This document shows, one piece after another, positions 29,663 through 60,355 of a DNA stretch of 64,000 bases (its first letter is position 1; every line of letters begins with the position of its first letter). Position numbers and translations under genes: made by a program. Origin of the DNA: Sphingopyxis sp. RIFCSPHIGHO2_12_FULL_65_19. GTDB taxonomy: Bacteria > Pseudomonadota > Alphaproteobacteria > Sphingomonadales > Sphingomonadaceae. Under the pieces are notes generated by a model. That model searched no databases. It was not told the DNA's origin and saw nothing but the letters and a program-made list of their open reading frames with translations. Where the stretch lies: positions 1 to 64,000 of the forward strand of contig NZ_MIAM01000030.1 in the NCBI RefSeq assembly GCF_001830555.1. Direction: 5' to 3'.

Positions 29663-29665
29663 TCG

Positions 29666-38513: not shown

Positions 38514-38523
38514 GGAATTCGAC

Positions 38524-44145: not shown

Positions 44146-44154
44146 ACAGGGACA

Positions 44155-44415: not shown

Positions 44416-44460
44416 GCGCATCCGCCGTCTGCGATAGCCATGCGACAAAGGGGAGCCAAG

Positions 44461-44856: not shown

Positions 44857-44897
44857 TTTCACCGATCTTTCACGATCAGCCGTTATTCGCCGCACAA

Positions 44898-44970: not shown

Positions 44971-45142
44971 CCGGCATATCTCAATGCAAGCCCCTCCGCC
45001 CTCCAGGGAATCGCGGGTCGAAGTGTTGATGATGATACGCCGTTGGAGTTGCTCGTCAATAAACCATCGGGCGGGGCCGCTCTAGATCGGGACGCTCACC
45101 GAATCATTGCGAACAATATGAGAACATCGCTAGCGTCGGGCG

Positions 45143-45427: not shown

Positions 45428-45500
45428 CCATATACTTATTTCGGCCAAATTTGCTCCGTTAGGGGAGGGCCGAAACTCGCGAAAAATGGCTGATTTTGTA

Positions 45501-45547
45501 GTGGTGAGCCCTGCTGGGTTCGAACCAGCGACCTACTGATTAAAAGT
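45501..45547. repeat. Attachment site copy 2, junction between the two elements
   Basis: 47 bp identical to copies 1 and 3; it shares TA before the repeat with copy 3 (49 bp). It ends at the anticodon loop, after which element 2 sequence begins (TGCGCATAGC). Confidence 0.9.
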
Positions 45548-45701
45548 TGCGCATAGCCCGGTAATCTGAGGCTAATCATGGTCATCAGGCGGCTCGCAAG
45601 CACGTAAAACCGCGACATTCACAGCACTCAGCGTCATTCGGCGGCGGCTAGAGATAGCGGCCTTTCGGTGTCTGACGCGGTGCTTGCAAGGAGAATGTCG
45701 C

Positions 45702-46898
45702 ATGGCCGTAATCAATCTCACTGAGGCTCGCATCCGCGAGCTACCCCTCGGATCGGGCATCCATCGGGATACCCAGGTCCGTGGCCTGATGGTGATTTGC
45801 CACAAGACCACGAAGTCATATGCCTGCCAAGGAGACGTGCGGCGGAACGGCCGCCATGTCCGCACAGTGCGCGTGAAGATCGACCGGGTGGATAGGATCG
45901 GGCTGCGCGATGCCCGCAACCGCGCGAAGGCTCTTATGTCGCAGATACAGTCGGGGATCGACCCGACGGACGGGCCCGATGAGACCGGCATCACATTGGA
46001 GCGGGCATTGGAAGCTCATCTGACCGAGAAACCGCACAGGCCGCGGACCGAGGAAGGTTATCGCTATCACCTCGACCACTACTTGAAAGCGTGGCGGAAG
46101 AAGGCCGTGGCCGACATTTCTCGGCAGATGGTCCGTGACCTGTTCGGCGAACTGAAACGGAAGCACGGCGAGACAACGGGTGCGTCGGTGATGCGGACGC
46201 TGCGGGCAGTGGTGAACACGGCCATGCGAATCGACGAAACACTCACCGGCAATCCGGTCGCGGCACTGCATGTCCCCTCGACGAAGCGTCGGAGGGTTGC
46301 TCCGCTCGACCTAACCGCGTGGTGGAGTGATGTGCTGCAGCTCAGTCCTGTGCGCCGTGATCTCCACATTTCCATGCTGCTTACCGGCGCTCGGCGTTCG
46401 TCCATACTGCAGGTGCGCCGTGACGACGTGGACGCGAAGAAGGCCGTTCTGACTTTGACCCACATGAAAACCAGCGACGAACCGCTTCAGCTTCCGATGG
46501 GCGCCCGGCTGGCGACAATTCTCGCGCACCGGATGCGAACCGACGAGCCGTTGGCCAGCGACTGGCTCTGGCCGTCGGTGACCAGCCGCAGCGGCCACAT
46601 CGAGGAACCGAAGGAGAAGGGTCTTCCGAGCCCGCATGAATATCGCCACCATGCCCGCACGCTCTATATCGCCGCTGGCGTGCCCTACGCCGAAAGCGCG
46701 CTGCTGCTCGGCCAAAAGCTACCAGGCGCGAGCGGTGGATATGTCCATGCCCAGCACTTGGTCGAGCAACTGCGGGTCCATGCGCAGGCCCTGGAGGACA
46801 TGGTATTCGGCGCCGCGCAGTTCACCCGCGACGGCGAAGAGGATGCCGTGTCGATTGACTTGGGCAGCCCCCAATTGGCCCTGCCTGCCCCTGAATGA
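45702..46898 (+). CDS. int: Tyrosine-type integrase of element 2
   Basis: 398 residues from the ATG at 45702 (AAGGAG upstream). The N-terminal Arm-binding domain has RGLMVICHKTTKSYACQGDV, the core-binding domain lies at about 97-190, and the catalytic domain has Arg231 (TGARRSS), Lys256 (THMKTS), His312-x2-Arg315 (PHEYRHH) and Tyr347 (SGGYVHA). The second catalytic His is replaced by Gln338 (LLLGQKLPG). It is distinct from integrase 1 despite using the same site. The 154 bp before it (45548-45701) hold no gene. Confidence 0.9.
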   Translation: MAVINLTEARIRELPLGSGIHRDTQVRGLMVICHKTTKSYACQGDVRRNGRHVRTVRVKIDRVDRIGLRDARNRAKALMSQIQSGIDPTDGPDETGITLERALEAHLTEKPHRPRTEEGYRYHLDHYLKAWRKKAVADISRQMVRDLFGELKRKHGETTGASVMRTLRAVVNTAMRIDETLTGNPVAALHVPSTKRRRVAPLDLTAWWSDVLQLSPVRRDLHISMLLTGARRSSILQVRRDDVDAKKAVLTLTHMKTSDEPLQLPMGARLATILAHRMRTDEPLASDWLWPSVTSRSGHIEEPKEKGLPSPHEYRHHARTLYIAAGVPYAESALLLGQKLPGASGGYVHAQHLVEQLRVHAQALEDMVFGAAQFTRDGEEDAVSIDLGSPQLALPAPE

Positions 46899-46997
46899 TG
46901 GGATAGCCGCCGTGGTCGAGCCGCTATCAAAATTGGGTAAGTCCCAAACTGGAGGCCGGGCGGATCGCTCGGCCTTCCTTCTTTCAGGAGCACCCTT

Positions 46998-47222
46998 TTG
47001 ACCGCCATCACCATCGACGAAATCCGCGAGGTCATCCGTGCGGAACTCGGCAAGCCGAGCACCCCGTGGATGGACAGCGATCAGGCCGCAGCGTACCTTG
47101 GCGCCACCGCCGGTACGCTCAAGAACTGGCGAGCAACGGGGAAGGGGCCGAAGTATCATATCGTTCAGGACCGCCTCGTCCGTTACCACCGTGAAGATCT
47201 GGACGCTTTCGTTCGCGCATGA
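46998..47222 (+). CDS. AlpA/excisionase-like HTH protein 1
   Basis: 74 residues from a TTG with CAGGAG 7 bp upstream. The pattern DQAAAYLGATAGTLKNWRAT then VRYHREDLDAF is the MerR/AlpA winged HTH used for excision or activation. It is the first regulator after integrase. Confidence 0.75.
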   Translation: MTAITIDEIREVIRAELGKPSTPWMDSDQAAAYLGATAGTLKNWRATGKGPKYHIVQDRLVRYHREDLDAFVRA

Positions 47223-47321
47223 TCGCTGCGGCTGACTGGCGCGCCGCCAACATTTTGCTGGTCTCAATCTCGCGTTGATGCGGGCTATCTATCGATAGCG
47301 CAACGACCAGGATGTAATCGA

Positions 47322-47525
47322 ATGCTCGAAGATTTCATGACGCCCGGCGAAACAGCCGCCCGACTTTCAACTACCGAAGGGACGTTGAGATGGATGCGCT
47401 GCAAGGGCAAGGGGCCGCCTTTCCTAAAAAAGGGGCGTTTCGTGCTCTATCGCCGCGATGACGTCGATGAGTACGCAATAGGAAAAGAGAGGGGCGCGGC
47501 CGAAAATCTCGACACGCGCCCCTAG
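47322..47525 (+). CDS. AlpA/excisionase-like HTH protein 2
   Basis: 67 residues (PGETAARLSTTEGTLRWMRC with GRFVLYRRDDVDEYA). The second small AlpA-type HTH in this element; it lies just ahead of the primase gene and so may be its activator. Confidence 0.75.
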   Translation: MLEDFMTPGETAARLSTTEGTLRWMRCKGKGPPFLKKGRFVLYRRDDVDEYAIGKERGAAENLDTRP

Positions 47526-47592
47526 TGTGGCCGGAATGGGATTGGCCAACTGCGAGACAGACAAAAGCACCATGAGCTATTAGGAACATTGA

Positions 47593-49920
47593 ATGTCTGA
47601 CGAGAATATCGATACCGCCGGGGCTCCCCCCAAACAGCCAGCATTCCTCCAGAATGCTGAGTTCATCGAACTCAACGGCAAGCGCCCAGTCGACCGCAAA
47701 TGGACCACTGACCGAAGTGTACGTTTCGATGCTGACGAGGCGGCACAGCGCTTGGCGGAGAACCGCAATGTGGGAGTCGTTCTCGGCGACCTTGATCTCG
47801 TCGTGGATGTGGATCCGCGAAACGGCGGCGATGACTCGTGGGAGCGTCTTCAGCGTGACTTCGCTATCAATGCCTCGGATTTCTCCACGGTGCGCACCGG
47901 CTCTGGCGGTCAGCACATCTATATGCGCCTGCCTAATGGCGCTGGTCGACTGAAGGGCAATCTGGAGCGGGATGGATACCCTGGCATCGACCTAAAATTC
48001 GTCGGCGGCCAAGTGGTCGCGCCGGGTTCCATCCATCCAGAGACGCGAAAGCCATATTCTGTCCTGTGCGATATTGATCCGCTGGACAGTCAGCCTCTCG
48101 TCCCGCAGTCGCTACTCGATCTCGCAGCTAGGCCAGCTGGGGTGCCGAACATTGCAGCCGCGGGTAGCTGGTCGCCAGAGAGGCTGGCTTATGTCCTTTC
48201 GCACTTGGACGTCGAAGACTTCCGCGAGCACGCACGTTGGCTCGAACTAATGATGTCGTGCCACGACGCGACAGAGGGCGGTGGCTGCGATGAGTTCGTT
48301 GAATGGTCTATCGGCGATCCCGCTTATGCCGGGCATGGCCAGATTATCGGTCGTCGTTGGGACAGCCTAGACACCGCGAAATCGGGTCGCATCACAGAGC
48401 GCACGCTAATCAAGTTCTTGGTGGACGCCAATGTCGCCCATCTTGTGGCACCGGACCAAGCCGCGGCGTTGGAAGACTTCGACGACATTGATCCACTTGA
48501 AGAGCCGGTATTACCGGGTGCAATCACTACCGCGAATGCCAAGGTTCAGGCGAAGTTACATCACCAGTCAAAGCTTCCGAAGACGGAAGCGGAATTGAAT
48601 GCGATGGGGTATATTGCCACCGACGCTGACGGCGGCTTTCGTGTCTTTCGGCGGATCTGGGACTTCGAACTCAACCGGGACTTCTGGCAGGTCCAGAAGA
48701 AGCAGGACTTCATCGACAGCGTTGCGGGCCACTCCGTCCCTGGCCTCACCCCGCAGGGAAAGGAGACTACCGTGCCGGTCGGCTCCTCGTGGCTCCGTTG
48801 GCCTCGACGGAACCGAGCCACCAAGGTCGTGTTCGATCCCGCCCGACGCATTCCTGCGAGCGCCCTGACGCTTAACCTATGGACGGGCTGGTCAGTACAG
48901 CCACGCAAGGGAGACTGGTCCCTGATGCAGGAACTGCTCCTCGAAGGGCTCTGTGACGGTAACCGTGAATTGTTCGAGTACGTCCTCGACTGGTCGGCTT
49001 TCATGATCCAGAACCCCGACAAGCCAGCCGAGGTCGCCGTGTTCTTCGTCGGCGGCAAAGGCACGGGCAAGGGGTCCTACTGTCGCGCGCTGACCACTCT
49101 CGCCGGACGCCACGGCATGCACGTCAGCGACGCTCAGCATCTCAGCGGACACTTCAATGCCCACCTTCGGGACTGCGTGTTCCTGTTTGTCGATGAGGCG
49201 ATCTGGGCGGGCGACAAGAAGACCGAAGGCACACTCAAGCGGGTGATCACCGAGCCGACGATCACCGTCGAAGGCAAGGGTAAGGACGTCGTGGTCGCCA
49301 AGAACTATCTGCACGTCATGGGGGCGTCGAACAGCCCTTGGGTATGGCCGGCATCCGAGGATGAGCGCCGTCTCGTCATCAGCCGCGTCAGCAACCGGTT
49401 CCAAGGCAAGAAGGCCTTCTTCGACAAGCTATACCGACAGATGGACGATGAGGGCGGGCTGGAAGCCATGCTGCACGACCTTCAGGCGCGGGACATCTCT
49501 AAGTTTCATCCACGGCGGTATCTGCCCAAGACCGAGGAGCTCGATCGTCAGATTGCGTTCACCAGACCACGCGTCGTCCAGGAACTCGCAGACCTCCATG
49601 CCAACGGCCAGCTGCCTTTCACCACCGGCCGGGAACTGATCGGCATGTACGACGACATCTTGGACCTGCCCGTCGTTAGGCGGTCGATCGACCAGATCGG
49701 GAAGGCGCCAGTGACCGACCAAATTGAGCGGTGGTTGCGAGATGACCTCGGGGCTACGTCGCACGAGCGAACGACCACGCAGAAGAAGAAGCCGTACTTG
49801 GGCATCTACAAGCGACCGACCGAGAAGCTCTGGTCGCTCGCCGATCATGATCGGTACGCTGCGATGTCTCCCGCGGCTCGGGCTGACGCGTTTCTGGAGC
49901 AGAAGCACCCCGAGGGCTGA
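47593..49920 (+). CDS. Primase-polymerase/helicase fusion, P4-alpha-like
   Basis: 775 residues. The N-terminal AEP primase-polymerase domain has VVDVDPR (catalytic Asp72 and Asp74), GSGGQHIY (His108) and GIDLKFVGGQVVAPGSIH. A linker leads to a D5/DUF5906-type SF3 helicase with Walker A GGKGTGKGS near residue 487 and Walker B FLFVDEA. It can prime and unwind its own origin, as P4 alpha does. The iteron cluster starts about 50 bp after the stop (49967-50265), matching the P4 layout. Confidence 0.9.
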   Translation: MSDENIDTAGAPPKQPAFLQNAEFIELNGKRPVDRKWTTDRSVRFDADEAAQRLAENRNVGVVLGDLDLVVDVDPRNGGDDSWERLQRDFAINASDFSTVRTGSGGQHIYMRLPNGAGRLKGNLERDGYPGIDLKFVGGQVVAPGSIHPETRKPYSVLCDIDPLDSQPLVPQSLLDLAARPAGVPNIAAAGSWSPERLAYVLSHLDVEDFREHARWLELMMSCHDATEGGGCDEFVEWSIGDPAYAGHGQIIGRRWDSLDTAKSGRITERTLIKFLVDANVAHLVAPDQAAALEDFDDIDPLEEPVLPGAITTANAKVQAKLHHQSKLPKTEAELNAMGYIATDADGGFRVFRRIWDFELNRDFWQVQKKQDFIDSVAGHSVPGLTPQGKETTVPVGSSWLRWPRRNRATKVVFDPARRIPASALTLNLWTGWSVQPRKGDWSLMQELLLEGLCDGNRELFEYVLDWSAFMIQNPDKPAEVAVFFVGGKGTGKGSYCRALTTLAGRHGMHVSDAQHLSGHFNAHLRDCVFLFVDEAIWAGDKKTEGTLKRVITEPTITVEGKGKDVVVAKNYLHVMGASNSPWVWPASEDERRLVISRVSNRFQGKKAFFDKLYRQMDDEGGLEAMLHDLQARDISKFHPRRYLPKTEELDRQIAFTRPRVVQELADLHANGQLPFTTGRELIGMYDDILDLPVVRRSIDQIGKAPVTDQIERWLRDDLGATSHERTTTQKKKPYLGIYKRPTEKLWSLADHDRYAAMSPAARADAFLEQKHPEG

Positions 49921-49966
49921 CGGCGCGGCCTGTGGGCAGGATTAGGTCGGACCGATCTTGGTCTAT

Positions 49967-50265
49967 GAAGACAGGGCGATGGCCCCTGTCTTCCGTCCGT
50001 CTTGGCCTAAGGACTTAAACCGTAAGGAAAAAAGCCGCGCCAAGACAGAAAGACAACGAATACTGACCTCTCCCGGTTCGCATAGAGAACGGCGAGGCAG
50101 TGACGCCGAGCAACCGCGCCGTCTGCCGACGCCATGCTCCGACCTTGCATTCGCTACACAACTCAAAAGTGCTGTCTTGTATGTCTTTCTGTCTTTTGTG
50201 TCGTAAAATAATAATAAAAATAAGCCTTTAGGAGAAGACAGGGGTAAAGACAGGGCGAATACAGG
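49967..50265. repeat. AAGACAG iteron cluster, candidate replication origin of element 2
   Basis: Seven exact copies of AAGACAG: direct at 49968, 50042, 50235 and 50247, inverted (CTGTCTT) at 49986, 50172 and 50189, plus a variant AATACAGG at 50258. The first pair makes a perfect inverted repeat GAAGACAGGG-N7-CCCTGTCTTC. An AT-rich island (TAAAATAATAATAAAAATAA) lies at 50203-50222. The whole gap 49921-50474 has no gene. Origin role inferred from its position after the primase-helicase. Confidence 0.65.
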
Positions 50266-50474
50266 GGGTATCACGGAGGCGCCTGGACTGTCGGGCGGAA
50301 AGCCCGCGAGATGCGCTGCCTCGCATTCCGTCCGATCCGAAAACGCGCCCGCGCGCGCGTAGCGGCTGGCCCACTGAGTAGCGATCAGCGGGCGTGGAAG
50401 GGTAAAATTACGTGCTATCAATGATTTGATTTCGGAGGGTCGTTCCAAGCACCGGACCAGACAACGTTCCGGCT

Positions 50475-50807
50475 TCAATCTTCATCGTCGTCCTCGCCTG
50501 CGGAATCGATCTGGGTCCGTAGATCGTCGATGCTGATTTCTCTCCAATTGGGTACAGCTTCGGCAATCTTCATGGGCGCAATGCCTTCTAGGCTCTCTTG
50601 CGAAATCACGACATAGCCGCCTCGGTTGAGCGGAAGAATGACCGCTACTCCCTCCATCCATTCCGCGATGTTGCGGATCAGAGCAGTCTTGATGACGTCG
50701 CGACCGGAGATGATCTGCAACGACTTTCGGCTAAGGCGAAAGCGAGCCTTGCCAGACTCCTTCAGCATCAGCATTAGCAGGTAAGCGATGTGTTCGTATG
50801 TGCGCAT
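50475..50807 (-). CDS. Hypothetical regulator-like protein
   Basis: 110 residues; ATG 50807 has AAAAAGGAG upstream. A helical N-terminus (HIAYLLMLMLKESGKARF) could be a winged helix; the tail is acidic (GEDDDED). It faces away from the TerS gene across two 14-bp repeats and may be the regulator that binds them. Confidence 0.6.
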   Translation of the reverse strand: MRTYEHIAYLLMLMLKESGKARFRLSRKSLQIISGRDVIKTALIRNIAEWMEGVAVILPLNRGGYVVISQESLEGIAPMKIAEAVPNWREISIDDLRTQIDSAGEDDDED

Positions 50808-50821
50808 TGGAAACTCCTTTT

Positions 50822-50857
50822 TATCCTAAATTGGGATATGTAGTATCCTAAAATGGG
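50822..50857. promoter_or_regulatory. Two 14-bp direct repeats in a divergent promoter region
   Basis: TATCCTAAATTGGG at 50822-50835 and TATCCTAAAATGGG at 50844-50857 (one mismatch), 22 bp apart, about two helix turns on one DNA face. They lie between the leftward 110-residue gene and the rightward TerS-like gene. Confidence 0.55.
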
Positions 50858-50923
50858 TGTCAACGATTTTCGTTGGCGGAGCGTTGGTATCGCCCGCATC
50901 AATTCCCACGGCATTCGTCGGGC

Positions 50924-51532
50924 ATGGCTGGATCACCCCGCAAGCGCGCACGGCGCATGGGCATCGACCCTCTCGACGAGCCGGCGCCCGGCTCGTCGGT
51001 GGCGCCAGCGCGTACAAGGCTCGAAGGTTTCGAACCCCACAACAAGGTTCGGCTGTCGGACGCCAACCGCCAGCGCGTCATGGCGGCGCTGCTTAATGGT
51101 TATCCGAAGGCTGCGATCGCCAACGCGCTGTCAATCAGCGCGAAGACTCTCGATCGGCTCATCTACGACGACGATGAGCTTCTGGATCAGGTCGAGGCGC
51201 AGCGGGCCTTTGAAGAGGCAGAGCTCCGGGACATCCTGATGGAGCTTGCCCGCAAGGGCGACACCGTCGCGGCGATCTTCCTGGCCAAGGCGCGGCATGG
51301 CTGGCGCGATCGCGATGATGCGAAGCTGAGCGTGGACACCGGCGGGGGCGGTGTGCTCGTCGTGCCAGGCACCATGCCGTTGGAACAGTGGACTGCTGCC
51401 GCTGCGCTCCAGCAGGCTAAGTATCGCGAGCGCCCCGACGCGCCCTTGGACGAACGCGAAATGAGGACCCACCCGACCACGGCGGATGGCCTAATTATCG
51501 AGAGGACGCTGCCGGGTGATCTGCCTGGCTAA
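50924..51532 (+). CDS. Terminase small-subunit-like protein (TerS)
   Basis: 202 residues from ATG 50924 (MAGSPRKRARRMG), preferred over an in-frame codon at 50873. A helix-turn-helix (VMAALLNGYPKAAIANALSI then SAKTLDRLI) is followed by a helical oligomerisation-like part (ELRDILMELARKGDTVAAIF) and the WRDRDDAKLSVDTG block seen in phage TerS proteins. With no TerL in the element, it may redirect a helper phage's packaging motor, as satellite TerS proteins do. It overlaps the convergent small gene by 4 bp. Confidence 0.6.
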   Translation: MAGSPRKRARRMGIDPLDEPAPGSSVAPARTRLEGFEPHNKVRLSDANRQRVMAALLNGYPKAAIANALSISAKTLDRLIYDDDELLDQVEAQRAFEEAELRDILMELARKGDTVAAIFLAKARHGWRDRDDAKLSVDTGGGGVLVVPGTMPLEQWTAAAALQQAKYRERPDAPLDEREMRTHPTTADGLIIERTLPGDLPG

Positions 51533-51696
51533 GCTGCTCGAGGTCGGGTGGAGGTGGAGATAGCCATCGCCGCGGCTACACTAACTCCCAGCGCCCAGAT
51601 AGTTTCGAAGAAAAGGGCGGTGATCGACATTAGTTTTGACTTACGACGCTTAGTTGCACAGGCTTTGGACTTCAACTTCATCAGCTTTTTGTTCAT
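51529..51696 (-). CDS. Small basic membrane peptide (55 residues)
   Basis: Start ATG 51696 with AAAGGAGATACCT, an excellent ribosome-binding site. The N-terminus is strongly basic (MNKKLMKLKSKACATKRRKS) and one hydrophobic segment follows (SITALFFETIWALGVSVAAA). The layout recalls type I toxins or small holin-like peptides, but no family is recognised. Its leader contains a tRNA-like T-arm. Confidence 0.55.
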   Translation of the reverse strand: MNKKLMKLKSKACATKRRKSKLMSITALFFETIWALGVSVAAAMAISTSTRPRAA

Positions 51697-51759
51697 AGGT
51701 ATCTCCTTTATTTGCTCACCGATGTATCGGATCACGGTCAGAGGGACGCTAAGAACTAG

Positions 51760-51783
51760 TGCAGCCGTGGGATTCGAACCCAC
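51760..51783 (-). other. tRNA T-arm-like remnant
   Basis: On the reverse strand GTGGG-TTCGAAT-CCCAC forms a perfect 5-bp/7-nt T-arm followed by GGCTGCA and CTAG instead of CCA. No convincing D-arm or anticodon arm is found upstream, though TGCACCC about 90 bases before could pair 6 of 7 with the acceptor strand. Probably a degenerate tRNA or captured tRNA end. Confidence 0.4.
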
Positions 51784-51865
51784 CCCAACCCCCGAAGCTG
51801 GTTGACGCGCCCAAGATAGCGACCGCCGCGGCCGCTCGCAAGCCTTGGGTGCAGGTTTGAGACAG

Positions 51866-52612
51866 CTACCCGGCCACCCTCACGATGTGTTTCATGAACG
51901 AAGCGGTGAGCTCAAAGATGAACTCGACCTCCTCCTCTGGCAGGTTATCGTCGTGCTTCACGTACTCATTCTGGTATTTGCCGTAGAGGTCCAAAAGCTT
52001 CTGGAACATGTTCGTGAACTGAGCCGAGGCGCCGCGCTCCTTGAGCTTGGCCCCTATGAGCGGGACTTGGTTCTCAAGCGATTTTGTATTCTCCAGTACT
52101 GACTTAAGCAGCAGTTCCAGACCTAGCCGCAGGTCGTCGAGCAGGTTGCGCTGGAAGATGCCCGCATCATATTTAAGTTTCGCCTGCTCCAGCTTCTCCA
52201 GCGACTTCGGGTAGCCGTGCAGCCAATGGCGGGTCTCCTCAATCAGCGGTACGTCGAGTTCCTTTACCTCCTTGTTCAGGCGCAAACTACCGAACCGGGT
52301 GAACAGCTCTGCCCGTAACTTCTTTCTCTCGCCGCCGGATGAGGATCCAACCGTGAAGGAGTGGTGCTCGCAGAGTTCCTCTATGATCTGGAACTGCTGC
52401 GGTGGCGAAAACGCTTGCAAGCTTTCGATTAGCGCTGTTCTCTTATTCGGCGCCTCGAAAGGATAGGTCGGGTGTGGCACACGCACGTGCCACATGTCGC
52501 CATAGCTGTTGATTGCGCGCACGATCTGGGGGCCGGTGAGTCCGGAGTTCGTGTCCGCGAGTAGCGCTGCAGCCTTGTCGAGGAAGGTGATGGGAATGTC
52601 TTCTAGGAACAT
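51866..52612 (-). CDS. AbiJ/HEPN-like putative abortive-infection protein
   Basis: 248 residues. The N-terminal part (SGLTGPQIVRAINSYGDMWH, then APNKRTALIESLQAF) resembles the AbiJ N-terminal domains that precede HEPN effectors. The C-terminal part is all helical and ends with NEYVKHDDNLPEEE followed by a helix, a weak R/N-x4-H-like HEPN motif. Such proteins cleave RNA during phage attack. Family membership is by eye only. A stand-alone gene in the cargo region of the satellite. Confidence 0.5.
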   Translation of the reverse strand: MFLEDIPITFLDKAAALLADTNSGLTGPQIVRAINSYGDMWHVRVPHPTYPFEAPNKRTALIESLQAFSPPQQFQIIEELCEHHSFTVGSSSGGERKKLRAELFTRFGSLRLNKEVKELDVPLIEETRHWLHGYPKSLEKLEQAKLKYDAGIFQRNLLDDLRLGLELLLKSVLENTKSLENQVPLIGAKLKERGASAQFTNMFQKLLDLYGKYQNEYVKHDDNLPEEEVEFIFELTASFMKHIVRVAG

Positions 52613-52763
52613 CTCACCCCCTTAGCCTAACAGCAACGATGTTGGATAGTGATCCGCCCGTCTGATCGGTCATCAGCGGGCACGATGTCCTGAAGGGATT
52701 TGAAAGCAGCGACTTGGCAATATGCAGGGCAGCCTAGCACCGAAGCAGGCACAGCGACGTCGT

Positions 52764-53189: not shown

Positions 53190-53308
53190 TGGACACTTTT
53201 GACCATGACTGATGCCCAGTCGTCAAGTAGTTGTAGCGCACCGGATGTTTGCCCTTATTGGAGTTGGTCGTCCGCTTCTGGACTGTTTAACAGAAAAGGT
53301 ACGACCAA

Positions 53309-53812
53309 ATGAGCAAGTCTGATGACAATACGCCCTTTATCCGCGGCTCTATCCCGAAAAATGAGCACGAAATCGTCCTCACCGTAAGCAACGAGTGCTT
53401 TGTTGAGGGGCGCAAGTTCAAGGACCGATACCTCTCGGATCACCCGATGCGCGACGAATACACCGAGACTGAGCTGAACCTCCTCGGAGCGGCGTTCCTG
53501 CGGGTTGCCGGCGCCTTGCCGATCTTCTCCTACGACCTGATCCGATGGACGACCGAGACGTGCATGTTCGATGGCCGCTCGGCGGTGCGGGAGTACGCCG
53601 AACGCGTCATCGGGATGGAGTATGTCGAGACGAACGTCGACCGCGGCCCTGGCCGCAAATGGAGCCCGATGACGGCTTCGCCATCGGATACAGCTAAGCT
53701 CTCTTACGCGTCCTACAGCGATCTTGATGCGCTCAAGGTGGCGGAGGAGATCGTGCAGCTTGTCAACGCGCAGGGGCGCCGCGGCGATGGGCTGCTGCCT
53801 ATGGCTGCCTGA
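53309..53812 (+). CDS. Hypothetical protein
   Basis: 167 residues; AAAAGG precedes the ATG. Mixed alpha/beta sequence (NLLGAAFLRVAGALPIFSYD, then EYAERVIGMEYVETNVDRG). No recognised family. First of four rightward unknown genes. Confidence 0.55.
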   Translation: MSKSDDNTPFIRGSIPKNEHEIVLTVSNECFVEGRKFKDRYLSDHPMRDEYTETELNLLGAAFLRVAGALPIFSYDLIRWTTETCMFDGRSAVREYAERVIGMEYVETNVDRGPGRKWSPMTASPSDTAKLSYASYSDLDALKVAEEIVQLVNAQGRRGDGLLPMAA

Positions 53813-53860
53813 CCGTAGATCAGCAGGCTTACGCTGAATAATCGCGCAAATCCATCGACA

Positions 53861-54038
53861 TGTCCGTCGCGGTGTTCTGTGAGCACCGCGGCGGACACCG
53901 AACTAGGCCGTTCGAGCTCAATGTTGGTCCCAATCGCGACTTGGCAAGCGCATCCCATAATCGTGTTTCGCTCGAGGCAACTGCGTCTCGGCCATGCCCG
54001 CGATGGCGGGCATCACTTGGGCTGAGCCCGGGCATGGT
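53861..54038. other. Structured non-coding stretch
   Basis: The 275-bp gap 53813-54087 contains a 14-bp stem with one G-U pair (53861-53874 with 53884-53897), a perfect ATGCCCGC-GATG-GCGGGCAT hairpin (53994-54013) and an overlapping alternative arm at 54029-54038. It could be a terminator plus leader, or a small RNA. Confidence 0.4.
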
Positions 54039-54087
54039 CGGATCATGAAGCCCCTGGCGAGACGCGAGGACCTTCAAGGAGAAGAAC

Positions 54088-54837
54088 ATGCCCGCACCCA
54101 AGGCCACGCTCGGCGCGCAATGGCTGAGCCCGACCGACATAAGATCCACCATCACCCGCATCCATGCGGGCCGCACGGCGCACTCCAATCTGCTCCGCAA
54201 CCTGTCCGGTCGCGTCGAACGCCACGGCGAGCAGGTCGCAAGCTCTCTTCGTACGCTTGACGCGAAGGATCGCCCCTCCGTGGTCGCGAAGTCGATCAGC
54301 GGCTTCCGCGGCGAGCTCGTCCGTGAGAGCGCTGACCAGCGGATCGCTCACACCCGTGAGTTGGCCGGGCTTGCCGGGAAGCTGACTGCGGCCTCCGTTC
54401 ACTACCGCAGTCCGGTCCAGATGCTCATGCGCGAGACCCTTGGATCAGAACGGCGCAGCAGGATCATGCAGCAGACCGCGGCGTCTGGCCCGGTTGAGCT
54501 CGCCAGCTTGGCGGAGTTCGCGGCGGCCACCAAGGACAAGGAGCTCGCGGCGGCGCTGTGCAGTCGCATCGCCGACCTGCCACGCTCTGATCGTCCGTTC
54601 TCGGCCGCCGAACTGGCCGACGTGCTCATCGGTGACCTGCACCGGGAGATGAGCCAGGCGCTCGTCGAGGCCGAGCGGCGCGTACTCGAAGCGCTCAATG
54701 AAGACGCCGAGTTCGAGACAGGCAAGCCGAACCCCCAGCGCGCACTGCAGATCGCAATGCTCCGCAAGCGCGAGCAGGAAATCGGGGCCTATACCGACGA
54801 TGAGGAAGACGCCGAGCAGCCCGCCGAAGCGGCCTGA
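54088..54837 (+). CDS. Hypothetical helical protein
   Basis: 249 residues; AAGGAGAAGAAC before the ATG. Mostly helical with charged segments (DLHREMSQALVEAERRVLEA), ending in an acidic tail (TDDEEDAEQPAEAA). It could be scaffold-like or capsid-associated, but there is no homologue I recognise. Confidence 0.6.
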   Translation: MPAPKATLGAQWLSPTDIRSTITRIHAGRTAHSNLLRNLSGRVERHGEQVASSLRTLDAKDRPSVVAKSISGFRGELVRESADQRIAHTRELAGLAGKLTAASVHYRSPVQMLMRETLGSERRSRIMQQTAASGPVELASLAEFAAATKDKELAAALCSRIADLPRSDRPFSAAELADVLIGDLHREMSQALVEAERRVLEALNEDAEFETGKPNPQRALQIAMLRKREQEIGAYTDDEEDAEQPAEAA

Positions 54838-54883
54838 TCCGCGCGCCATAAAACCGTAGCACCAACCAAAAAAGGAATTTCAC

Positions 54884-55153
54884 ATGGCCGTATATGCCTT
54901 CTTTCCCTCCGCCGAAAACCTCCGCCGTCCTGACGGCATCGGCTTCATCATAGCCGAGGGCGCAGACGTCGCGGCCGCCCGCACCGTTGCTCAAGCATTG
55001 GCCGGTGGTCCGTCGATCGAGAAATTCACCGCCGTTGTCGTCGGCGCGGGCATGGATGCTGTCGCCGTGCAGGGACTTCCCGTCGGTGCACCGAACCGCT
55101 CCACCTGGCCGAAACTGACGCGCGGCGGCAACTTCCTCAATCCGGCGACGTGA
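54884..55153 (+). CDS. Hypothetical small protein
   Basis: 89 residues; AAAGGAATTTCAC before the ATG. Compact alpha/beta pattern (GIGFIIAEGADVAAARTVAQ). The next gene starts 1 bp after its stop. Confidence 0.55.
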   Translation: MAVYAFFPSAENLRRPDGIGFIIAEGADVAAARTVAQALAGGPSIEKFTAVVVGAGMDAVAVQGLPVGAPNRSTWPKLTRGGNFLNPAT

Positions 55154-55154
55154 C

Positions 55155-55442
55155 GTGGCGCGCAATCCAGTATTGTCCTCGATCCGCAAGCTCGCCGGGT
55201 ATCAGGCTATCAGCCTGAACGAAGCATTCCGGCTGCTGATTGCAGGCAGGGGAGACCCCGACCTTATGCCTATGCGGGCGAGGAAAGGGCTGTGTAGCAT
55301 CTTGCGCGGCTTCGGCTACCGGGAGACATTTATGATCAAGTCGGGATCGGATGAAGGGCAACTCATGTGGGTCAGGAACCCATGGCCGATCGACGTGGCC
55401 TCGGTCCGCAGCGGCAAGACGGAAACCTACGAAAGGTTCTGA
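55155..55442 (+). CDS. Hypothetical small protein
   Basis: 95 residues from GTG 55155, 1 bp after the preceding stop, so probably co-translated. Basic, with LAGYQAISLNEAFRLLIAGR; may bind nucleic acid. A hairpin terminator follows. Confidence 0.5.
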   Translation: MARNPVLSSIRKLAGYQAISLNEAFRLLIAGRGDPDLMPMRARKGLCSILRGFGYRETFMIKSGSDEGQLMWVRNPWPIDVASVRSGKTETYERF

Positions 55443-55445
55443 CGC

Positions 55446-55479
55446 AGAAGGCTCCGAGATTTCAGTCTCGGGGCCTTCT
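55446..55479 (+). terminator. Hairpin terminator
   Basis: AGAAGGCTCCGAGA-N6-TCTCGGGGCCTTCT, a 14-bp stem with one wobble pair, 3 bp after the stop of the preceding gene. The T-tract is weak (TTCTGATATT). Confidence 0.6.
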
Positions 55480-55590
55480 GATATTCAATCAGCAGGACGC
55501 CGCCCCGTAGGTCGCGGTTTTCCAAGGTTTCCAGAGTAGGATGGCGCGAAAGCACCGTGACGCGCACTGTAATGTGACCGACGAGCTGAC

Positions 55591-55989
55591 CTAAGCGCCG
55601 AGATGGGCGAGGGCGTTCACTTCCGCCTGGATGCGTTCGAGAGACACGGTAAGTTCGCGCGCGCGGGGTATGCGCACCTCGTTGAGCAGGCGGAAGGCCA
55701 CGCGCTCGTCGATCACGTCCACGATCTCCGTCGAGGCGCGTCGGTCTCCAATCCAATAGACCTGCATTACCGTTACCGTGCCTGTGAAGCGCTCACCTGA
55801 AGATGTCGGACCATCGAGTGCATAGCTGAGCGCGGAAATTCTTGCCCGATCGAGCGCGTTGAACTCTTCGATGACGGGCTGCCGTTCGATACCGCGCGAA
55901 CCCGGCTCACGATCTCGATGGACTTCATACCTCGCGACCGGCCCCTTATCGCCTCTCGCTAAGCCTGCGGACGTTCCCGATGCTTTCAT
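55591..55989 (-). CDS. Hypothetical protein
   Basis: 132 residues; GGAAGTCAGC precedes the ATG at 55989. The middle holds a beta-rich segment (GERFTGTVTVMQVYWIGDRR), followed by a C-terminal helix. No family recognised. It lies downstream of the nuclease-like gene on the same strand. Confidence 0.5.
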   Translation of the reverse strand: MKASGTSAGLARGDKGPVARYEVHRDREPGSRGIERQPVIEEFNALDRARISALSYALDGPTSSGERFTGTVTVMQVYWIGDRRASTEIVDVIDERVAFRLLNEVRIPRARELTVSLERIQAEVNALAHLGA

Positions 55990-56052
55990 GCTGACTTCCT
56001 TTCGACTGCATTGCGGAACAAAGCGCTGTGGAAGCCGATAAGCGAACCCGCA

Positions 56053-56562
56053 CTATGGCGCAGCGGTCCCCGAAAACATGGCCATGGCCAGATCTCTGAT
56101 ATTGTCGAAACGAGTAAACTCTCCACGCGGCAGTCGCCGAAGTCCGCTCCGAACCTTTTTTATGCCATCTGCGTCACCGCGGGAATGTCGCACCGACCGA
56201 TCCCCGAGCGGCGGCAGCGGCTGTCCGACCGATCCGCCGAACCAAAGGAATGGGCCGAGGTTCAGCGTAGCCGGATCGACGAACATCCAGACAACGCAGC
56301 CGCCGGGCTTTTGGGCCAGTGCGAGTTGGACATCTACGTGCGCGCGGCTGCCACCGGCGGTGGTGGCCTTGAGTTGGATGTGGCGCATCGCGTCCCCGAC
56401 CTGGACGACGATGTCGTACCCAAACGCATCATATTCCGGCCGCAGCACCTCGAACGGTTGACCCACGTCGAGCAGGAGATGACGTGAGAGCTCGGCCAAA
56501 AAGATATGCTCGATCACCTTCTCGCGCAGCACCGAGTGCTCAGGGGCCCAAACGTCGAACAT
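56053..56562 (-). CDS. PD-(D/E)xK-like nuclease candidate
   Basis: 169 residues from ATG 56562 (MFDVWAPEHSVLREKV). A short pattern E-x8-D followed by IQLKAT (EYDAFGYDIVVQV then MRHIQLKATT) matches the (D/E)-x-K core of restriction-like nucleases with Gln in place of the second acid. It is divergent from the controller gene across the C-box palindrome, so it may be under controller control, as restriction genes often are. Assignment tentative. Confidence 0.45.
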   Translation of the reverse strand: MFDVWAPEHSVLREKVIEHIFLAELSRHLLLDVGQPFEVLRPEYDAFGYDIVVQVGDAMRHIQLKATTAGGSRAHVDVQLALAQKPGGCVVWMFVDPATLNLGPFLWFGGSVGQPLPPLGDRSVRHSRGDADGIKKVRSGLRRLPRGEFTRFDNIRDLAMAMFSGTAAP

Positions 56563-56601
56563 GGCGCGACACTGCCGCGCCAATCTCGCCTGTCAACTGA
56601 A

Positions 56602-56619
56602 TAGGGACTATAGTCCCTA
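56602..56619. promoter_or_regulatory. C-box-like operator
   Basis: TAGGGACTATAGTCCCTA, a perfect 18-bp palindrome with the GACTATAGTC core typical of restriction-modification controller (C protein) boxes, 35 bp before the controller gene and between it and the leftward nuclease candidate. Confidence 0.75.
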
Positions 56620-56653
56620 GAGAATATCGCGTGGCACGGCTCCAGTCTGGACG

Positions 56654-56863
56654 ATGGACTGGAACAAGATTGTCGGCGCAAATGTGAAGAGGTTGCGGAT
56701 CGAGCGGAAGCTTACGCAGGAGCAACTCGCGCACGACGCCGAAATCGACCTGACTTACATGGGTGGCATAGAGCGCGGACGCCGCAATCCGTCGCTGTCG
56801 GTCATTGCGCGATTGGCGGACGCGCTCGGCGTACATCCCGCCGACCTGCTCAGCTACAGCTGA
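56654..56863 (+). CDS. Restriction-modification controller protein (XRE family)
   Basis: 69 residues, a single HTH_3 domain (RKLTQEQLAHDAEIDLTYMG then ERGRRNPSLSVIARLADALG), the size and pattern of R-M C proteins. The palindromic C-box lies just upstream, and the adjoining genes are a C5-methyltransferase and nucleases. It probably delays restriction until methylation is complete. It is convergent with the methyltransferase gene. Confidence 0.85.
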   Translation: MDWNKIVGANVKRLRIERKLTQEQLAHDAEIDLTYMGGIERGRRNPSLSVIARLADALGVHPADLLSYS

Positions 56864-56885
56864 GGCAGGCGGCGCGACCTGTCTC

Positions 56886-58100
56886 TCAAGCGGTTGGGAA
56901 ATAAGCGTTTGCTAAAGCAGTGGCCAGCGTTGCGGCCAGAACGGGCGGCACAGCGTTCCCCACTTGGGTGAACTGCCGCGCTGTTGGCCCGAGGAAGACG
57001 TAGTCGTCAGGAAACGTTTGCAGGCGAGCACATTCCCTAACGCTTAATGTTCTGGGTATTTCGGGATGCAAGTGAGAGCGGCCACCGCCGTTCGTTCCAC
57101 CTGCGATCACCGTCTTAGATGGAAGCGTGGGATCTAATCGATCAACTCGACCAAGTTGGTCACGCTGACCATAGTCGAGTTTCATGTATCGCTCGATCGA
57201 TCCGGCCTTATGTGTGCGGGTCTCGTGGTTTGGCAATCCGTTCGGCAGCTTGCTGAGAACGCTAGCGCAGCCAACGTGAGGTTTTTTGGGCGGCACAACG
57301 AGCTTACCGTTAGTCCGCGATCCTACGACGAAGAGGCGCTCTCTATATTGCGGAACTCCATAGTCAGCCGCGTTCAGCACCGTCGGCTCGTTTACGGCGT
57401 ATCCTTCCTGCCTGAGCAGCTCAATGGCCGCGGACAGCTGTTCTCCGCCATCAAGATCGCGCAGCCCAGGTACATTCTCAACGACGAAGACTTTCGGCCT
57501 AAATCGGATCACGAGTTGGACGTAATCGAAAAGAAGATTGCCATTCTTTTCATGAGCAAAGCCGACGCGCTTAAAATTCTCTCCTGATCGCGAAAATCGT
57601 TGATTCGCCGCAATGCTAAACGGCTGACACGGCGAGCCACCGACGAAAATACCTTCGAATGGTGTGTCGATCAGGGGGGTAAGCGCTTCTACTACCTCGA
57701 CAAATTGAGAGACATCTCCACTTCCGAATGGGGGCCCGAATACCTTCCACTTCGGCCGGTTCTTTCGGAGGGTTCGGCAGAAAATCTCGTTGTGCTCGAA
57801 TGCAGCGATGGTTTCGAAACCGATCTGCTCAAACCCTAGATCCATTCCCCCACAACCGGTGAAAAAGCTGACCACAGGGACGCCCTTAACGAGCTTCTTA
57901 AAATCGCCAAGTTTTGTAGGAGCTCCACCCGTCCAACGCTTTTCATGCGCTCGCTGGTAAATGAGGTCGTCGTAGCTCAGGCCAGCGACCGCCAGTGCCG
58001 CGGCCAAATCGTCGTCGGAACTTACCATTTGAGAGATCAGTTTTTGCTGCTCAGCGTATTCATCGGTTGTTACAGGTAATTTTAGCTGCGCAGCCGTCAT
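56886..58100 (-). CDS. DNA (cytosine-5) methyltransferase
   Basis: 404 residues. Motif I FFTGCGGMDLGFEQIGF (from residue 79), motif IV GGSPCQPFS with catalytic Cys158, motif VI VVENVPG (207-212), motif VIII QYRERLFVVG and motif X VGNAVPPVLA are all present. The target-recognition region lies between VIII and X. The ATG overlaps the stop of the upstream HNH gene (ATGA), so nuclease and methyltransferase form an operon. The recognition sequence cannot be read from sequence. Confidence 0.93.
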   Translation of the reverse strand: MTAAQLKLPVTTDEYAEQQKLISQMVSSDDDLAAALAVAGLSYDDLIYQRAHEKRWTGGAPTKLGDFKKLVKGVPVVSFFTGCGGMDLGFEQIGFETIAAFEHNEIFCRTLRKNRPKWKVFGPPFGSGDVSQFVEVVEALTPLIDTPFEGIFVGGSPCQPFSIAANQRFSRSGENFKRVGFAHEKNGNLLFDYVQLVIRFRPKVFVVENVPGLRDLDGGEQLSAAIELLRQEGYAVNEPTVLNAADYGVPQYRERLFVVGSRTNGKLVVPPKKPHVGCASVLSKLPNGLPNHETRTHKAGSIERYMKLDYGQRDQLGRVDRLDPTLPSKTVIAGGTNGGGRSHLHPEIPRTLSVRECARLQTFPDDYVFLGPTARQFTQVGNAVPPVLAATLATALANAYFPTA

Positions 58101-59248
58101 GTGGTGTTCCTCAGATTCTTGGCTTGGTCATATACCGCACGAGCTTCTGCAGCGTCGACAAAATCCTTCTTGCCCTGCGCCTTCAACCACTTCGTATAAA
58201 AGCGATGGACGGCGCGATGGCAGGTAGGACAGATGGCAACTAGGTCACCCAAAACGGTCCCGCTTTTATCCGATCTCGTACCGGAACAAAGGGGTAACAC
58301 ATGGTGGATGTCAAGTACACGGTCAGCCCATGGAAATTCCGATTTTGTGTCACGGGCGCAGAAATCGCAGGTCGTGGTCGGGTTCTTCTCGAAGTAGGCA
58401 TTTCGGATCGCCGAGTTGCGTTCGAGCACGATGTGCGTCCGCTCAACACGGGTGCCCTCGGAAAACCCCGCTTCGACCGTTTCATCAAGCACCGTTTTGG
58501 AGAAATCAATTTCGAAATCGCTGACGGCGCTTTCGAACAGGCCAGCTATGCGCAAAATCTCTCGCTCGCTGCCGTTTTCTTGCTTCCCCCGGATCGCTTG
58601 CAGGCTTTCAAAGACGTCGATGGCGTCGTCCTTGTCGAGGGAGACCGTGACTTCCGTCGATGTCGCACTCAGATACGAAATCTGTCCAATCACCTGAATG
58701 CTTTCTCGCGCCTGCCGGTGATCTCCTGAGGTCCATGATTTTTTGGCGATCTCTATGAAAGCCGTTTGGTCCTCTTCACCGTCGAAATTGCTCCTTTGAT
58801 AGGCCCCAACAATTTCGCGGATGCCGACGACCGGACTGCCCAAAACCGACCGAGTGAGCAGGAATTTCAACGCAAATAGAAGTGGGAAGCGCGGTGTCTC
58901 CGTTGGCTTCCATTCTTGAAAGGATGGCGCGGGATCAGTGAACGATTGGGCTAGAAAATGGAAATAGTCATCCGAGGTGACTTGGCCGTCTTTGGCGAGT
59001 GCTTGAGCGATTGGCGTAGGGACCGCGTTGTCCCCAATCTTGGCGACAAGCATTGCCGTACGGAACACCCGAGAGTAGTTGCGCCACGGCGGATAGGCGG
59101 TGGACGCAGGAAGAAATGGCAACCCTGTCGCTGACACAAGAGGACCGCGACTTGCAGATTTCAGGTCATCTGCGACTGCAAATTTTGCAATTTTTCGCAG
59201 TTCGTCGAACTGGAAGTATTCAATCCTGCCTTGGTCAAACCGCCACAT
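58097..59248 (-). CDS. HNH endonuclease, probable type II restriction enzyme
   Basis: 383 residues from ATG 59248 (MWRFDQGRIEYFQF). The C-terminal HNH module has CDFC, LDIHHVLPLCSG and CPTCHRAVHR with paired zinc Cys. The rest is an uncharacterised N-terminal region. The stop overlaps the methyltransferase start, the usual link of R and M genes. The in-frame sequence from 59248 to 59440 lacks a good start and is left out. Confidence 0.75.
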   Translation of the reverse strand: MWRFDQGRIEYFQFDELRKIAKFAVADDLKSASRGPLVSATGLPFLPASTAYPPWRNYSRVFRTAMLVAKIGDNAVPTPIAQALAKDGQVTSDDYFHFLAQSFTDPAPSFQEWKPTETPRFPLLFALKFLLTRSVLGSPVVGIREIVGAYQRSNFDGEEDQTAFIEIAKKSWTSGDHRQARESIQVIGQISYLSATSTEVTVSLDKDDAIDVFESLQAIRGKQENGSEREILRIAGLFESAVSDFEIDFSKTVLDETVEAGFSEGTRVERTHIVLERNSAIRNAYFEKNPTTTCDFCARDTKSEFPWADRVLDIHHVLPLCSGTRSDKSGTVLGDLVAICPTCHRAVHRFYTKWLKAQGKKDFVDAAEARAVYDQAKNLRNTT

Positions 59249-59419
59249 TGTCACCCCCGTATTTCGGAAGGGGATAGCAATCGCGAGAGCGGCAATCCAG
59301 CGGGAAGAGTTTGAACGACCTAAACAGCTAGCGCAAGTTTCTGCCCGCGTCGTCAGCGTTTGAAGTGCCAGAAATTTCCCTCTACGAGTTGTTCTGGAGT
59401 TTCGACGGGGAGGAATACA

Positions 59420-60163
59420 GTGCCGACTAAGGCGTACCACAGGTTTTTGAACCGGATAGCTTATTACAACACCGACATCGAGCTGTGCGAACTCTTAGTA
59501 GGCAGGTTTTTTCAGACACCCCATTCCGACGAAAATCTTGCAGTGGCTTTGGGGTCAACCGCGGATATCCATCCAAGTCTTTCGCGCCGCGTTAATTCGC
59601 GCAATTCTAAAAACATATGTGGAAATCACCTGAAATCTACTTTGTATGCCGCCTTCATAAAGGATCTTTTCGAAGATTTTTCGGCATTTATTTCGGATAC
59701 GATGACTAAAGCTGCTCTTGCGGGCATTGACCCTGCCCGGTTTGTGGGCGAGATTCGTCTGGATCTCCATGCCGCTGATATTCTTGCAACTGGGAACTGG
59801 GACGCGGCGGTCCGCCTTGTGTCAGACGCGATATTCCGTAAACTCGAGAATGAGCGAAACACGAAGGAGCTCTTGCGAAAGGCAAGCGCGCGGCTCGGTT
59901 TAGCGCTTGACCAGAACGTCTTGAACGGGGCCATGCCATATCTTGATGCTCGCCATATTCTCGTGCATCGCGACGGGCGCGTTGATGACCTATATGTCGC
60001 AGACTATCCTCAAATTCAGGTGCGAGAAGGAAAAATTGCGACGAATTATCAGTTCGTTGGGGACGCTCGGCGGGCGGTGGATGCGCTGGCTCGTCATATT
60101 GACGAGCGCGTGATCGCAGCGAACTTGGTAAGAAACCAGGATATGAGTGGACGGCGCCAATAG
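59420..60163 (+). CDS. HEPN-like (RiboL-PSP type) putative ribonuclease protein
   Basis: 247 residues from GTG 59420, with GGGGAGGA 5 bp before. The C-terminal helical domain contains LDARHILVHRDGRVDDLYV, the R-x4-H core of RiboL-PSP/HEPN domains (Arg-His-x3-Val-His). The N-terminal part is helical. HEPN proteins of this kind serve as toxins or defence RNases. It is divergent from the HNH gene and last in element 2. The 145 bp after it carry repeated CGGTTTCT-like words and lead into the attachment site. Confidence 0.6.
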   Translation: MPTKAYHRFLNRIAYYNTDIELCELLVGRFFQTPHSDENLAVALGSTADIHPSLSRRVNSRNSKNICGNHLKSTLYAAFIKDLFEDFSAFISDTMTKAALAGIDPARFVGEIRLDLHAADILATGNWDAAVRLVSDAIFRKLENERNTKELLRKASARLGLALDQNVLNGAMPYLDARHILVHRDGRVDDLYVADYPQIQVREGKIATNYQFVGDARRAVDALARHIDERVIAANLVRNQDMSGRRQ

Positions 60164-60308
60164 CCGCGCTCGCTTAAACCAGACCGTCCCAGGACATATC
60201 AGCAATCTGAAACTGCTCGAATAGTCGGTTTCTATTCGGTTCTTATAGTTCAAGCTCCAGCGGTTTCTCAAAAATCCGCATAAAAAATACATCAAAATCA
60301 ATGCATTA

Positions 60309-60355
60309 GTGGTGAGCCCTGCTGGGTTCGAACCAGCGACCTACTGATTAAAAGT
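60309..60355. repeat. Attachment site copy 3, inside the intact tRNA-Lys
   Basis: 47 bp identical to copies 1 and 2; it covers the tRNA from the anticodon loop to the CCA end. Here the tRNA is completed by chromosomal sequence to the right. Confidence 0.9.

What the first reader, a model, noticed from the sequence alone, without database searches (positions are those of the whole stretch)
45501..60308. Element 2 has the gene plan of a phage satellite with a defence cargo
int, two AlpA-like genes, a P4-alpha-like primase-helicase, iterons and a TerS-like gene without TerL, capsid, tail or lysis genes match P4/PICI-type satellites. About half its length is accessory: an AbiJ/HEPN-like gene, a controller-regulated R-M system, a second HEPN-like gene and a run of unknown proteins. 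The four rightward unknown genes at 53309-55442 could be novel helper-interference or defence genes.
Basis: partly seen in the sequence, partly recalled or inferred. Interest (0 to 1): 0.75.

Follow-up and report, generated by a model that had tools for sequence, protein, structure and literature searches.

The report
Fixed-size phage satellite with defence cargo
This 14.8-kb stretch looks like a parasite of bacterial viruses, one of a family in related bacteria whose members keep nearly the same length while swapping likely defence genes, which suggests that they travel inside virus shells of fixed capacity.

Summary
Element 2 is 14,808 bp between 49-bp repeats at tRNA-Lys, with int, two AlpA-type genes, Prim-Pol/helicase, seven iterons and TerS; no TerL, capsid, tail or lysis gene was found in it. 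Comparison now supports the satellite reading. It belongs to a family in Sphingomonadales and some other Alphaproteobacteria. Sixteen members delimited by repeats measure 13.4-15.1 kb (SD 415 bp); left and right parts compensate in length (r=-0.88, permutation p=2e-5), as expected of packaged DNA. TerS is real: in sister elements and in 7 of 9 viral contigs its homologue directly precedes TerL. Corrections: three of the four rightward unknown genes (54088-55442) are family core, not cargo; the 249-aa all-helical product of 54088-54837 is my candidate capsid-size or packaging factor. The controller gene sits with a PD-(D/E)XK-like gene and its own C-box and recurs without this methyltransferase. 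Cargo is 27-33%, not half. The "AbiJ" gene matches PADLOC PDC-S32. The primase misses the P4-family cut-off. Helper, excision, packaging and defence are untested. New family of a known kind.

The parts
45499..45547 (.). attL-side copy of the 49-bp repeat
45702..46898 (+). tyrosine integrase (core, 16 of 16)
   Evidence: Pfam PF00589/PF02899, phrog_1
46998..47222 (+). AlpA-type HTH_17 protein 1 (core)
47322..47525 (+). AlpA-type HTH_17 protein 2
47593..49920 (+). Prim-Pol / PriCT_2 / DUF5906 primase-helicase (core, 16 of 16)
49968..50253 (.). seven AAGACAG iterons in both orientations; likely replication origin
50475..50807 (-). unknown small protein
   Evidence: no Pfam match; one weak PHROGs row
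50924..51532 (+). terminase small subunit (start at the conserved MAGSP; longest ORF starts at 50873)
   Evidence: phrog_309 in 13 of 14 homologues; TerL next to homologues
51866..52612 (-). slot A cargo: PADLOC PDC-S32 candidate defence gene
   Evidence: homologues in L038 and L043
52764..53189 (-). small protein with weak HTH matches, divergent from the core operon; possible regulator
   Evidence: Pfam rows below cut-off; relatives in L039, L049, L050, L052, L083
53309..53812 (+). unknown, weak relatives in L040, L042, L083
54088..54837 (+). core 249-aa all-helical protein (16 of 16); candidate capsid-size or packaging factor
54884..55153 (+). core 89-aa protein (15 of 16)
55155..55442 (+). 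95-aa protein (11 of 16)
55591..55989 (-). 132-aa protein (10 of 16)
56053..56562 (-). PD-(D/E)XK-like protein (5 of 16); motif assignment by eye
   Evidence: PF11645 row below cut-off; alignment
56604..56617 (.). C-box-like perfect palindrome GGGACTATAGTCCC
56654..56863 (+). controller (C)-type regulator (8 of 16 by clustering)
   Evidence: PADLOC Control_protein 3.7e-18
56886..58100 (-). slot B cargo: cytosine-5 DNA methyltransferase
   Evidence: PF00145 6.5e-56
58097..59248 (-). slot B cargo: HNH endonuclease-like protein (383 aa; longest ORF to 59440)
   Evidence: PF01844 row just below cut-off, phrog_119; same length in L082
59360..60163 (+). slot B cargo: unknown protein with an R-x4-H motif
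60307..60355 (.). attR-side copy of the 49-bp repeat in tRNA-Lys

Best explanation
Element 2 is a phage satellite of a family found in Sphingomonadales and some other Alphaproteobacteria. The integrase places it in the 3' end of tRNA-Lys. A helper phage most likely switches on AlpA, leading to excision; Prim-Pol/helicase replicates the circle from the iterons at 49968-50253; the satellite's TerS marks its DNA for the helper's large terminase, so it enters helper-made heads. Genes 54088-55442 are its helper-interaction set; the 249-aa all-helical protein most likely sets capsid size or loading, since members keep about 14.3 kb. Two exchangeable slots (after TerS; between the C gene and tRNA) carry likely anti-phage genes. 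Shown by sequence: boundaries, content, family, TerS identity, size constraint, purifying selection. [quoted passage not shown]
For: att pair in tRNA-Lys and empty sites in 7 of 19 same-genus loci. Shared gene order in relatives. 16 elements of 13,371-15,132 bp, SD 415, left/right r=-0.88, no shuffle of 50,000 reached the observed variance. TerS: phrog_309 in 13 of 14; TerL directly after TerS in L049, L083, L052, L054 and in 7 of 9 IMG/VR contigs. No capsid, portal, tail-tube or lysis family in the scan of 101 ORFs of 14 elements. dN/dS 0.06-0.35 for eight genes against L036. The 54088 protein: none in 50,697 phage records, 1 in 72,556 plasmids.
Against: No excision, induction or transfer data. 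No helper identified; TerS has no match in phage records at 1e-5. Some sister elements carry TerL, so lack of TerL does not define the family. One of 101 ORFs matched a Neck1-type family. L053 is 11.06 kb without int, an exception to the size rule left out of the test. The size test ignores shared ancestry. Iteron-like repeats after the primase were unusual in 7 of the other 15 elements and not in 8.
Confidence: 0.87

Rival explanations
1. A prophage remnant: a phage that lost its structural genes and keeps int, replication and TerS by chance.
For: A defective-looking prophage-like element 1 lies in tandem; sister elements still carry TerL.
Against: The same short plan recurs in 16 elements with intact frames and dN/dS 0.06-0.35; constant size; the core protein was not found in phage records.
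Confidence: 0.06
2. A mobilisable or other non-phage integrative island that uses conjugation.
For: One relative of the core protein lies on a conjugative Rhizobium plasmid.
Against: No relaxase or other conjugation family among the Pfam matches of the 20 window ORFs scanned; TerS would have no role; constant size is not expected.
Confidence: 0.04
3. A satellite packaged as several copies in a full-size head; the size rule reflects a whole number of copies, and 54088-54837 does something else, such as interference or late regulation.
For: PICMIs package concatemers (PMC10803314, passages); no fold match of 54088-54837 to a known size switcher.
Against: A headful mechanism, which a pac-type TerS would suggest, does not need a fixed unit length; the 54088 protein is in all 16 elements.
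Confidence: 0.35
4. The C gene controls the methyltransferase/HNH pair as an ordinary C-regulated R-M system.
For: C lies next to the methyltransferase and has a C-box; L040 has C beside the same pair.
Against: The exact palindrome occurs once in the element, between C and the PD-(D/E)XK-like gene. C and that gene recur where no homologue of this methyltransferase was found (L036, L029) or only one 25-29% identical (L041, L049); L082 has the pair without a detected C; C plus PD-(D/E)XK-like genes occur in other islands.
Confidence: 0.15

Closest known systems
Gram-negative PICIs such as EcCICFT073 (PMC6092414, passages)
   Same: int, AlpA, primase/replication, origin, sometimes TerS, accessory genes; specific attachment sites.
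   Different: Different hosts and core genes; induction, interference and packaging not shown here; no sequence comparison with PICI proteins was made.
P4-like satellites (Sid size switcher described in passages of PMC10945586 and PMC10690885)
   Same: int, AlpA-like gene, primase-helicase.
   Different: The primase part is Prim-Pol and misses the P4-family model cut-off; TerS present; no fold match to Sid was returned.
Capsid-forming PICIs (as described in passages of PMC10690885)
   Same: Some sister elements carry TerS and TerL.
   Different: No capsid, protease or portal family found; the window element has no TerL.
PICMIs (PMC10803314, passages)
   Same: int-AlpA-primase core.
   Different: The studied PICMI is 6,110 bp, has no terS homologue, and PICMIs integrate next to fis.
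Int-AlpA-primase-TerS-TerL elements L069 and L032 seen here
   Same: Left half and related TerS.
   Different: No 54088 homologue seen in the stretches held; L069 is about 9.15 kb at tRNA-Thr.

Membership tests
phage satellite (general) | integrated, att-bounded, integrase and replication genes, no virion structural genes | tested here: met
phage satellite (general) | helper-dependent excision, packaging and transfer | not testable with these tools
   needs experiment
Gram-negative PICI | AlpA regulator and primase/replication module with origin | tested here: met
   AlpA assignment is HTH_17 plus recalled usage
Gram-negative PICI | genes exclusive to PICIs, relationship to known PICI proteins | not tested
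   no PICI catalogue was at hand
P4-like | primase of the P4 family | tested here: not met
   TIGR01613 34.1 bits, cut-off 108.7; Prim-Pol domain
P4-like | Sid/Psu/Delta homologues | tested here: inconclusive
   54088 had no PHROGs family at 0.1 and no fold match at 1e-3; no direct comparison with Sid, Psu or Delta was made
capsid-forming PICI | own capsid, portal and protease genes | tested here: not met
terminase small subunit | profile match and position before TerL | tested here: met
   13 of 14; homologues; TerL absent in the window element itself
controller (C) protein | small HTH protein with a GACT/AGTC-core C-box upstream | tested here: met
C-regulated R-M system made of C + methyltransferase + HNH | C-box before the regulated R-M genes; conserved linkage | tested here: not met
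   no box within 2 mismatches before these genes; linkage not conserved
AbiJ | match to AbiJ models | tested here: not met
   only PDC-S32 at E<=0.1
HEPN (59360-60163) | R-x4-6-H motif in a helical HEPN domain | tested here: inconclusive
   motif present; no profile or PDB sequence match; fold not predicted

The most novel reading that the evidence does not exclude
The family has its own class of capsid-size director, unrelated to known ones: the 249-aa all-helical protein (54088-54837), with its 89-aa partner, makes helper coat protein form heads that hold about 14.3 kb. One branch dropped TerL and kept a TerS whose C-terminal tail, shared with proteins of other islands, docks onto helper terminases. 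The elements also serve as a traffic system for restriction-modification genes: a cytosine methyltransferase occurs in 13 of 16.
Probability: 0.3. Interest if true: 0.75.

Novelty: new variant of a known kind. Interest (0 to 1): 0.6.

Why it matters
Satellites have been described mainly in enterobacteria, staphylococci and vibrios (general knowledge). The listings of my paper searches (some listings capped) showed no paper on satellites of Sphingomonadales or Rhizobiales by title or abstract; one review that holds the words Sphingopyxis and phage satellite once each (PMC13343209) was not opened, and the library holds open-licence papers only. If the reading is right, these bacteria have a satellite family whose fixed length gives a sequence-only sign of packaging, whose core protein may be a new way of resizing phage heads, and whose slots are a place to look for defence genes. 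An IMG/VR entry identical to the window over the 5,198 bases compared ends at the TerS stop codon, so a virus collection has cut this element in the middle.

Tried and rejected
P4-alpha identity of the primase: not borne out. Structure route to 54088: good model (pLDDT 88.5) but no match at E<=1e-3 in BFVD or PDB; the top PDB rows are STAT proteins and I give them no weight. 54884: mediocre model (pLDDT 71.2) and no match in BFVD at 1e-3. PDB sequence searches: none at E<=1 for the 54088 and 54884 profiles or for the 51866 and 59360 proteins; 14 rows for TerS, best 0.04 and HTH-type; two rows for the PD-(D/E)XK-like family, the better a putative endonuclease at 0.12. TerS in phage records at 1e-5 and 54088 at 1e-3: no match. 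PDC-S32 in papers: none. TerS tail in IMG/VR: one match, identical to the window. 55591 in IMG/VR: none. Element 1 as helper: its TerL shares only about 27% over 128 aa with those of sister elements and it looks defective, so I do not claim it.

Rows dropped before counts. L048 rests on a 13-bp repeat and was tested with and without; L044 likewise. ORFs under 80 aa and recognised core genes were left out of A9 (130 ORFs of 14 elements; L082 and L083 not among them); A10 is 101 of those 130, with methyltransferases, TerS/TerL and repeats of some families left out. Tables show the first 25 of 56, 155 and 72 families; one search shows all 23.
Full report
Boundaries. Element 2 lies between two identical 49-bp repeats at 45499 and 60307, 14,808 bp apart. 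The right copy is the 3' end of a tRNA-Lys(TTT) gene. A third copy at 27632 makes a tandem with element 1. Of 19 same-genus loci held (L087-L105), 7 have the homologue of the window's left-flank gene beside tRNA-Lys, so the site is empty there; the other 12 show no such homologue in the short stretch held and were not judged.

Genes. Scans of Pfam, PHROGs, NCBIfam and PADLOC give a tyrosine integrase, two HTH_17 (AlpA-type) proteins, a Prim-Pol/PriCT_2/DUF5906 protein and a TerS-like protein. The helicase part resembles the P4 family weakly (TIGR01613, 34.1 bits, cut-off 108.7); the primase part is Prim-Pol. Seven copies of AAGACAG lie between 49968 and 50253 and nowhere else in the element. 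In an 8-mer test of about 900 bp after the primase against first-order random sequence, the window's count of 4 was reached in 1 of 200 random sequences; among the other 15 elements, 6 had counts that 0 of 200 reached (L042, L043, L028, L029, L030, L083), L038 2 of 200, and 8 nothing unusual.

A family. The protein of 54088-54837 served as bait. A pattern scan of 84,980 genomes returned 20 loci out of 80 candidate stretches, among them Sphingopyxis, Novosphingobium, Erythrobacter, Citromicrobium, Sphingorhabdus, Sphingobium and Sandaracinobacteroides, as well as Martelella, Devosia and Allorhizobium, and one short match in a MAG labelled actinobacterium. Profile searches found it in 11 of 396 genomes of the order and 2 of 385 drawn from the class, the window's own included in both. 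IMG/VR gave one locus for it and two for its 89-aa neighbour, one of them on the same contig. It had no match in 50,697 phage records and one in 72,556 plasmids. Common order: int, AlpA, Prim-Pol, TerS, slot A, 54088, 54884, 55155, then 55591, PD-(D/E)XK-like and C genes, slot B, tRNA, with local exceptions.

What is core. In 16 elements with both ends, by clustering: int, AlpA, primase and 54088 in 16; 54884 in 15; TerS in 14; cytosine methyltransferase in 13; 55155 in 11; 55591 in 10; C in 8; PD-(D/E)XK-like in 5; PDC-S32 in 3; the HNH gene in 3. Against a Sphingopyxis MAG element (L036), dN/dS is 0.06-0.35 for eight genes; dS is 0.09-0.30 for 54088, 54884 and 55155 but above 1.0 for the other five, so that block was probably exchanged recently as a unit.

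Size. The 16 elements measure 13,371-15,132 bp (mean 14,288, SD 415). The part from attL to the end of 54088 ranges over 2.5 kb and the rest over 2.9 kb, but they compensate: r=-0.88; random re-pairing gives a mean SD of 1,140 bp, and none of 50,000 re-pairings reached the observed variance (p=2e-5). Without L048 (13-bp repeat) p=1.8e-4; without L044 too, 5e-4. The elements share ancestry, so p is optimistic; but their cargo differs, and the flanks held would have allowed much larger elements where contigs were long enough. L053 (11.06 kb, no int) breaks the rule and was left out. A capsid of fixed capacity, or a fixed number of copies per head, explains the rule simply.

TerS. 13 of 14 homologues match phrog_309. 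In L049, L083, L052 and L054 the next gene is TerL, and in L053 a TerL match lies in the same 427-aa frame as the 54088 match; a TerL match also lies in L085 near a 54088 relative; in 7 of 9 IMG/VR contigs found with TerS, TerL follows directly. Among the 16, only L049 and L083 carry TerL by an HMM built from four TerL proteins. The Devosia element L048 and the alphaproteobacterial MAG element L044 carry a different TerS (phrog_4044). L069, from another genome, is a 9.15-kb int-AlpA-primase-TerS-TerL element at tRNA-Thr. The C-terminal stretch of the window's TerS (GGGVLVVPG...W..AAA.QQ) also ends proteins of other islands that hold a C gene and a PD-(D/E)XK-like gene; their neighbours look like DUF5681 and ParB-methyltransferase genes, names recalled and not tested.

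Other virion genes. Of 101 unassigned ORFs from 14 elements, PHROGs matches at 1e-6 were methyltransferases, endonucleases, helicase, a SbcC-like protein, unknowns, and one ORF with a Neck1-type match; no capsid, portal, tail-tube or lysis family appears in the full list of 23. L082 and L083 were tested only for TerL.

Regulation and cargo. The C gene (PADLOC control protein, 3.7e-18) and the PD-(D/E)XK-like gene diverge from 91 bp that hold a perfect palindrome, GGGACTATAGTCCC, identical in 5 of 7 aligned loci and exact in 4 of 16 elements, once in the window's. It fits the described C-box, inverted repeats with a GACT/AGTC core (PMC5282649, passages). No such box within two mismatches precedes the methyltransferase/HNH pair. 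That pair recurs at 77-82% in L040 and L082, so it moves as a cassette. PDC-S32 homologues sit in the same slot in L038 and L043. Whether any of these genes acts against phage is unknown.

The core protein. AlphaFold2 gives a confident all-helical model with long helices (15-53, 62-106, 173-211) and no match in BFVD or PDB at 1e-3. Known size switchers of satellites are scaffolds or capsid-binding proteins, several helical (PMC10945586 and PMC12409344, passages). The size rule, presence in all 16 elements, position after TerS and lack of another candidate make it my first guess for capsid size or packaging: inference by elimination.

Helper. 10 of 11 satellite-bearing genomes searched have a TerL match; some of these are the satellites' own, and gene transfer agents may count too, so this says little. 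The own genome has two: in element 1 and on contig C72.

Verdict. A satellite in gene plan and evolution, not shown in action; best filed for now as a new family beside the PICIs rather than as a P4 relative.

Noticed in passing
window 27632-45499: Element 1 is a 17.9-kb tandem neighbour at the same att: integrase, primase-helicase, TerL, head maturation protease and tape-measure gene, but little recognisable after the tape measure; a defective prophage or a capsid-carrying satellite.
   Followed up: partly
L069:4020-13190; L032:7863-14318: Related elements with int, AlpA, primase, TerS and TerL in other genomes; L069 is about 9.15 kb at tRNA-Thr with no 54088 match.
   Followed up: partly
L066:9606-13174, L067:9978-13542, L068:4980-7520: Other islands carry the C + PD-(D/E)XK-like pair beside a protein that ends with the same tail as the window's TerS.
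   Followed up: partly
L053:9371-10654: TerL and 54088 matches lie in one 427-aa frame of an 11-kb element that lacks int; looks like a deletion product.
   Followed up: no
L109 (IMGVR_UViG_2710723593_000001): IMG/VR entry identical to window 46335-51532; it ends at the TerS stop, so the prophage call cuts element 2 in the middle.
   Followed up: no
L106 (G319), L107 (G888): In two same-genus genomes the tRNA-Lys repeat occurs twice, 11.6 and 10.8 kb apart: other insertions at the same site, without the core genes of this family.
   Followed up: partly
window 54088-55442 against L036: Much lower synonymous divergence in this block than in the genes around it: recent exchange of a module between satellites.
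   Followed up: partly
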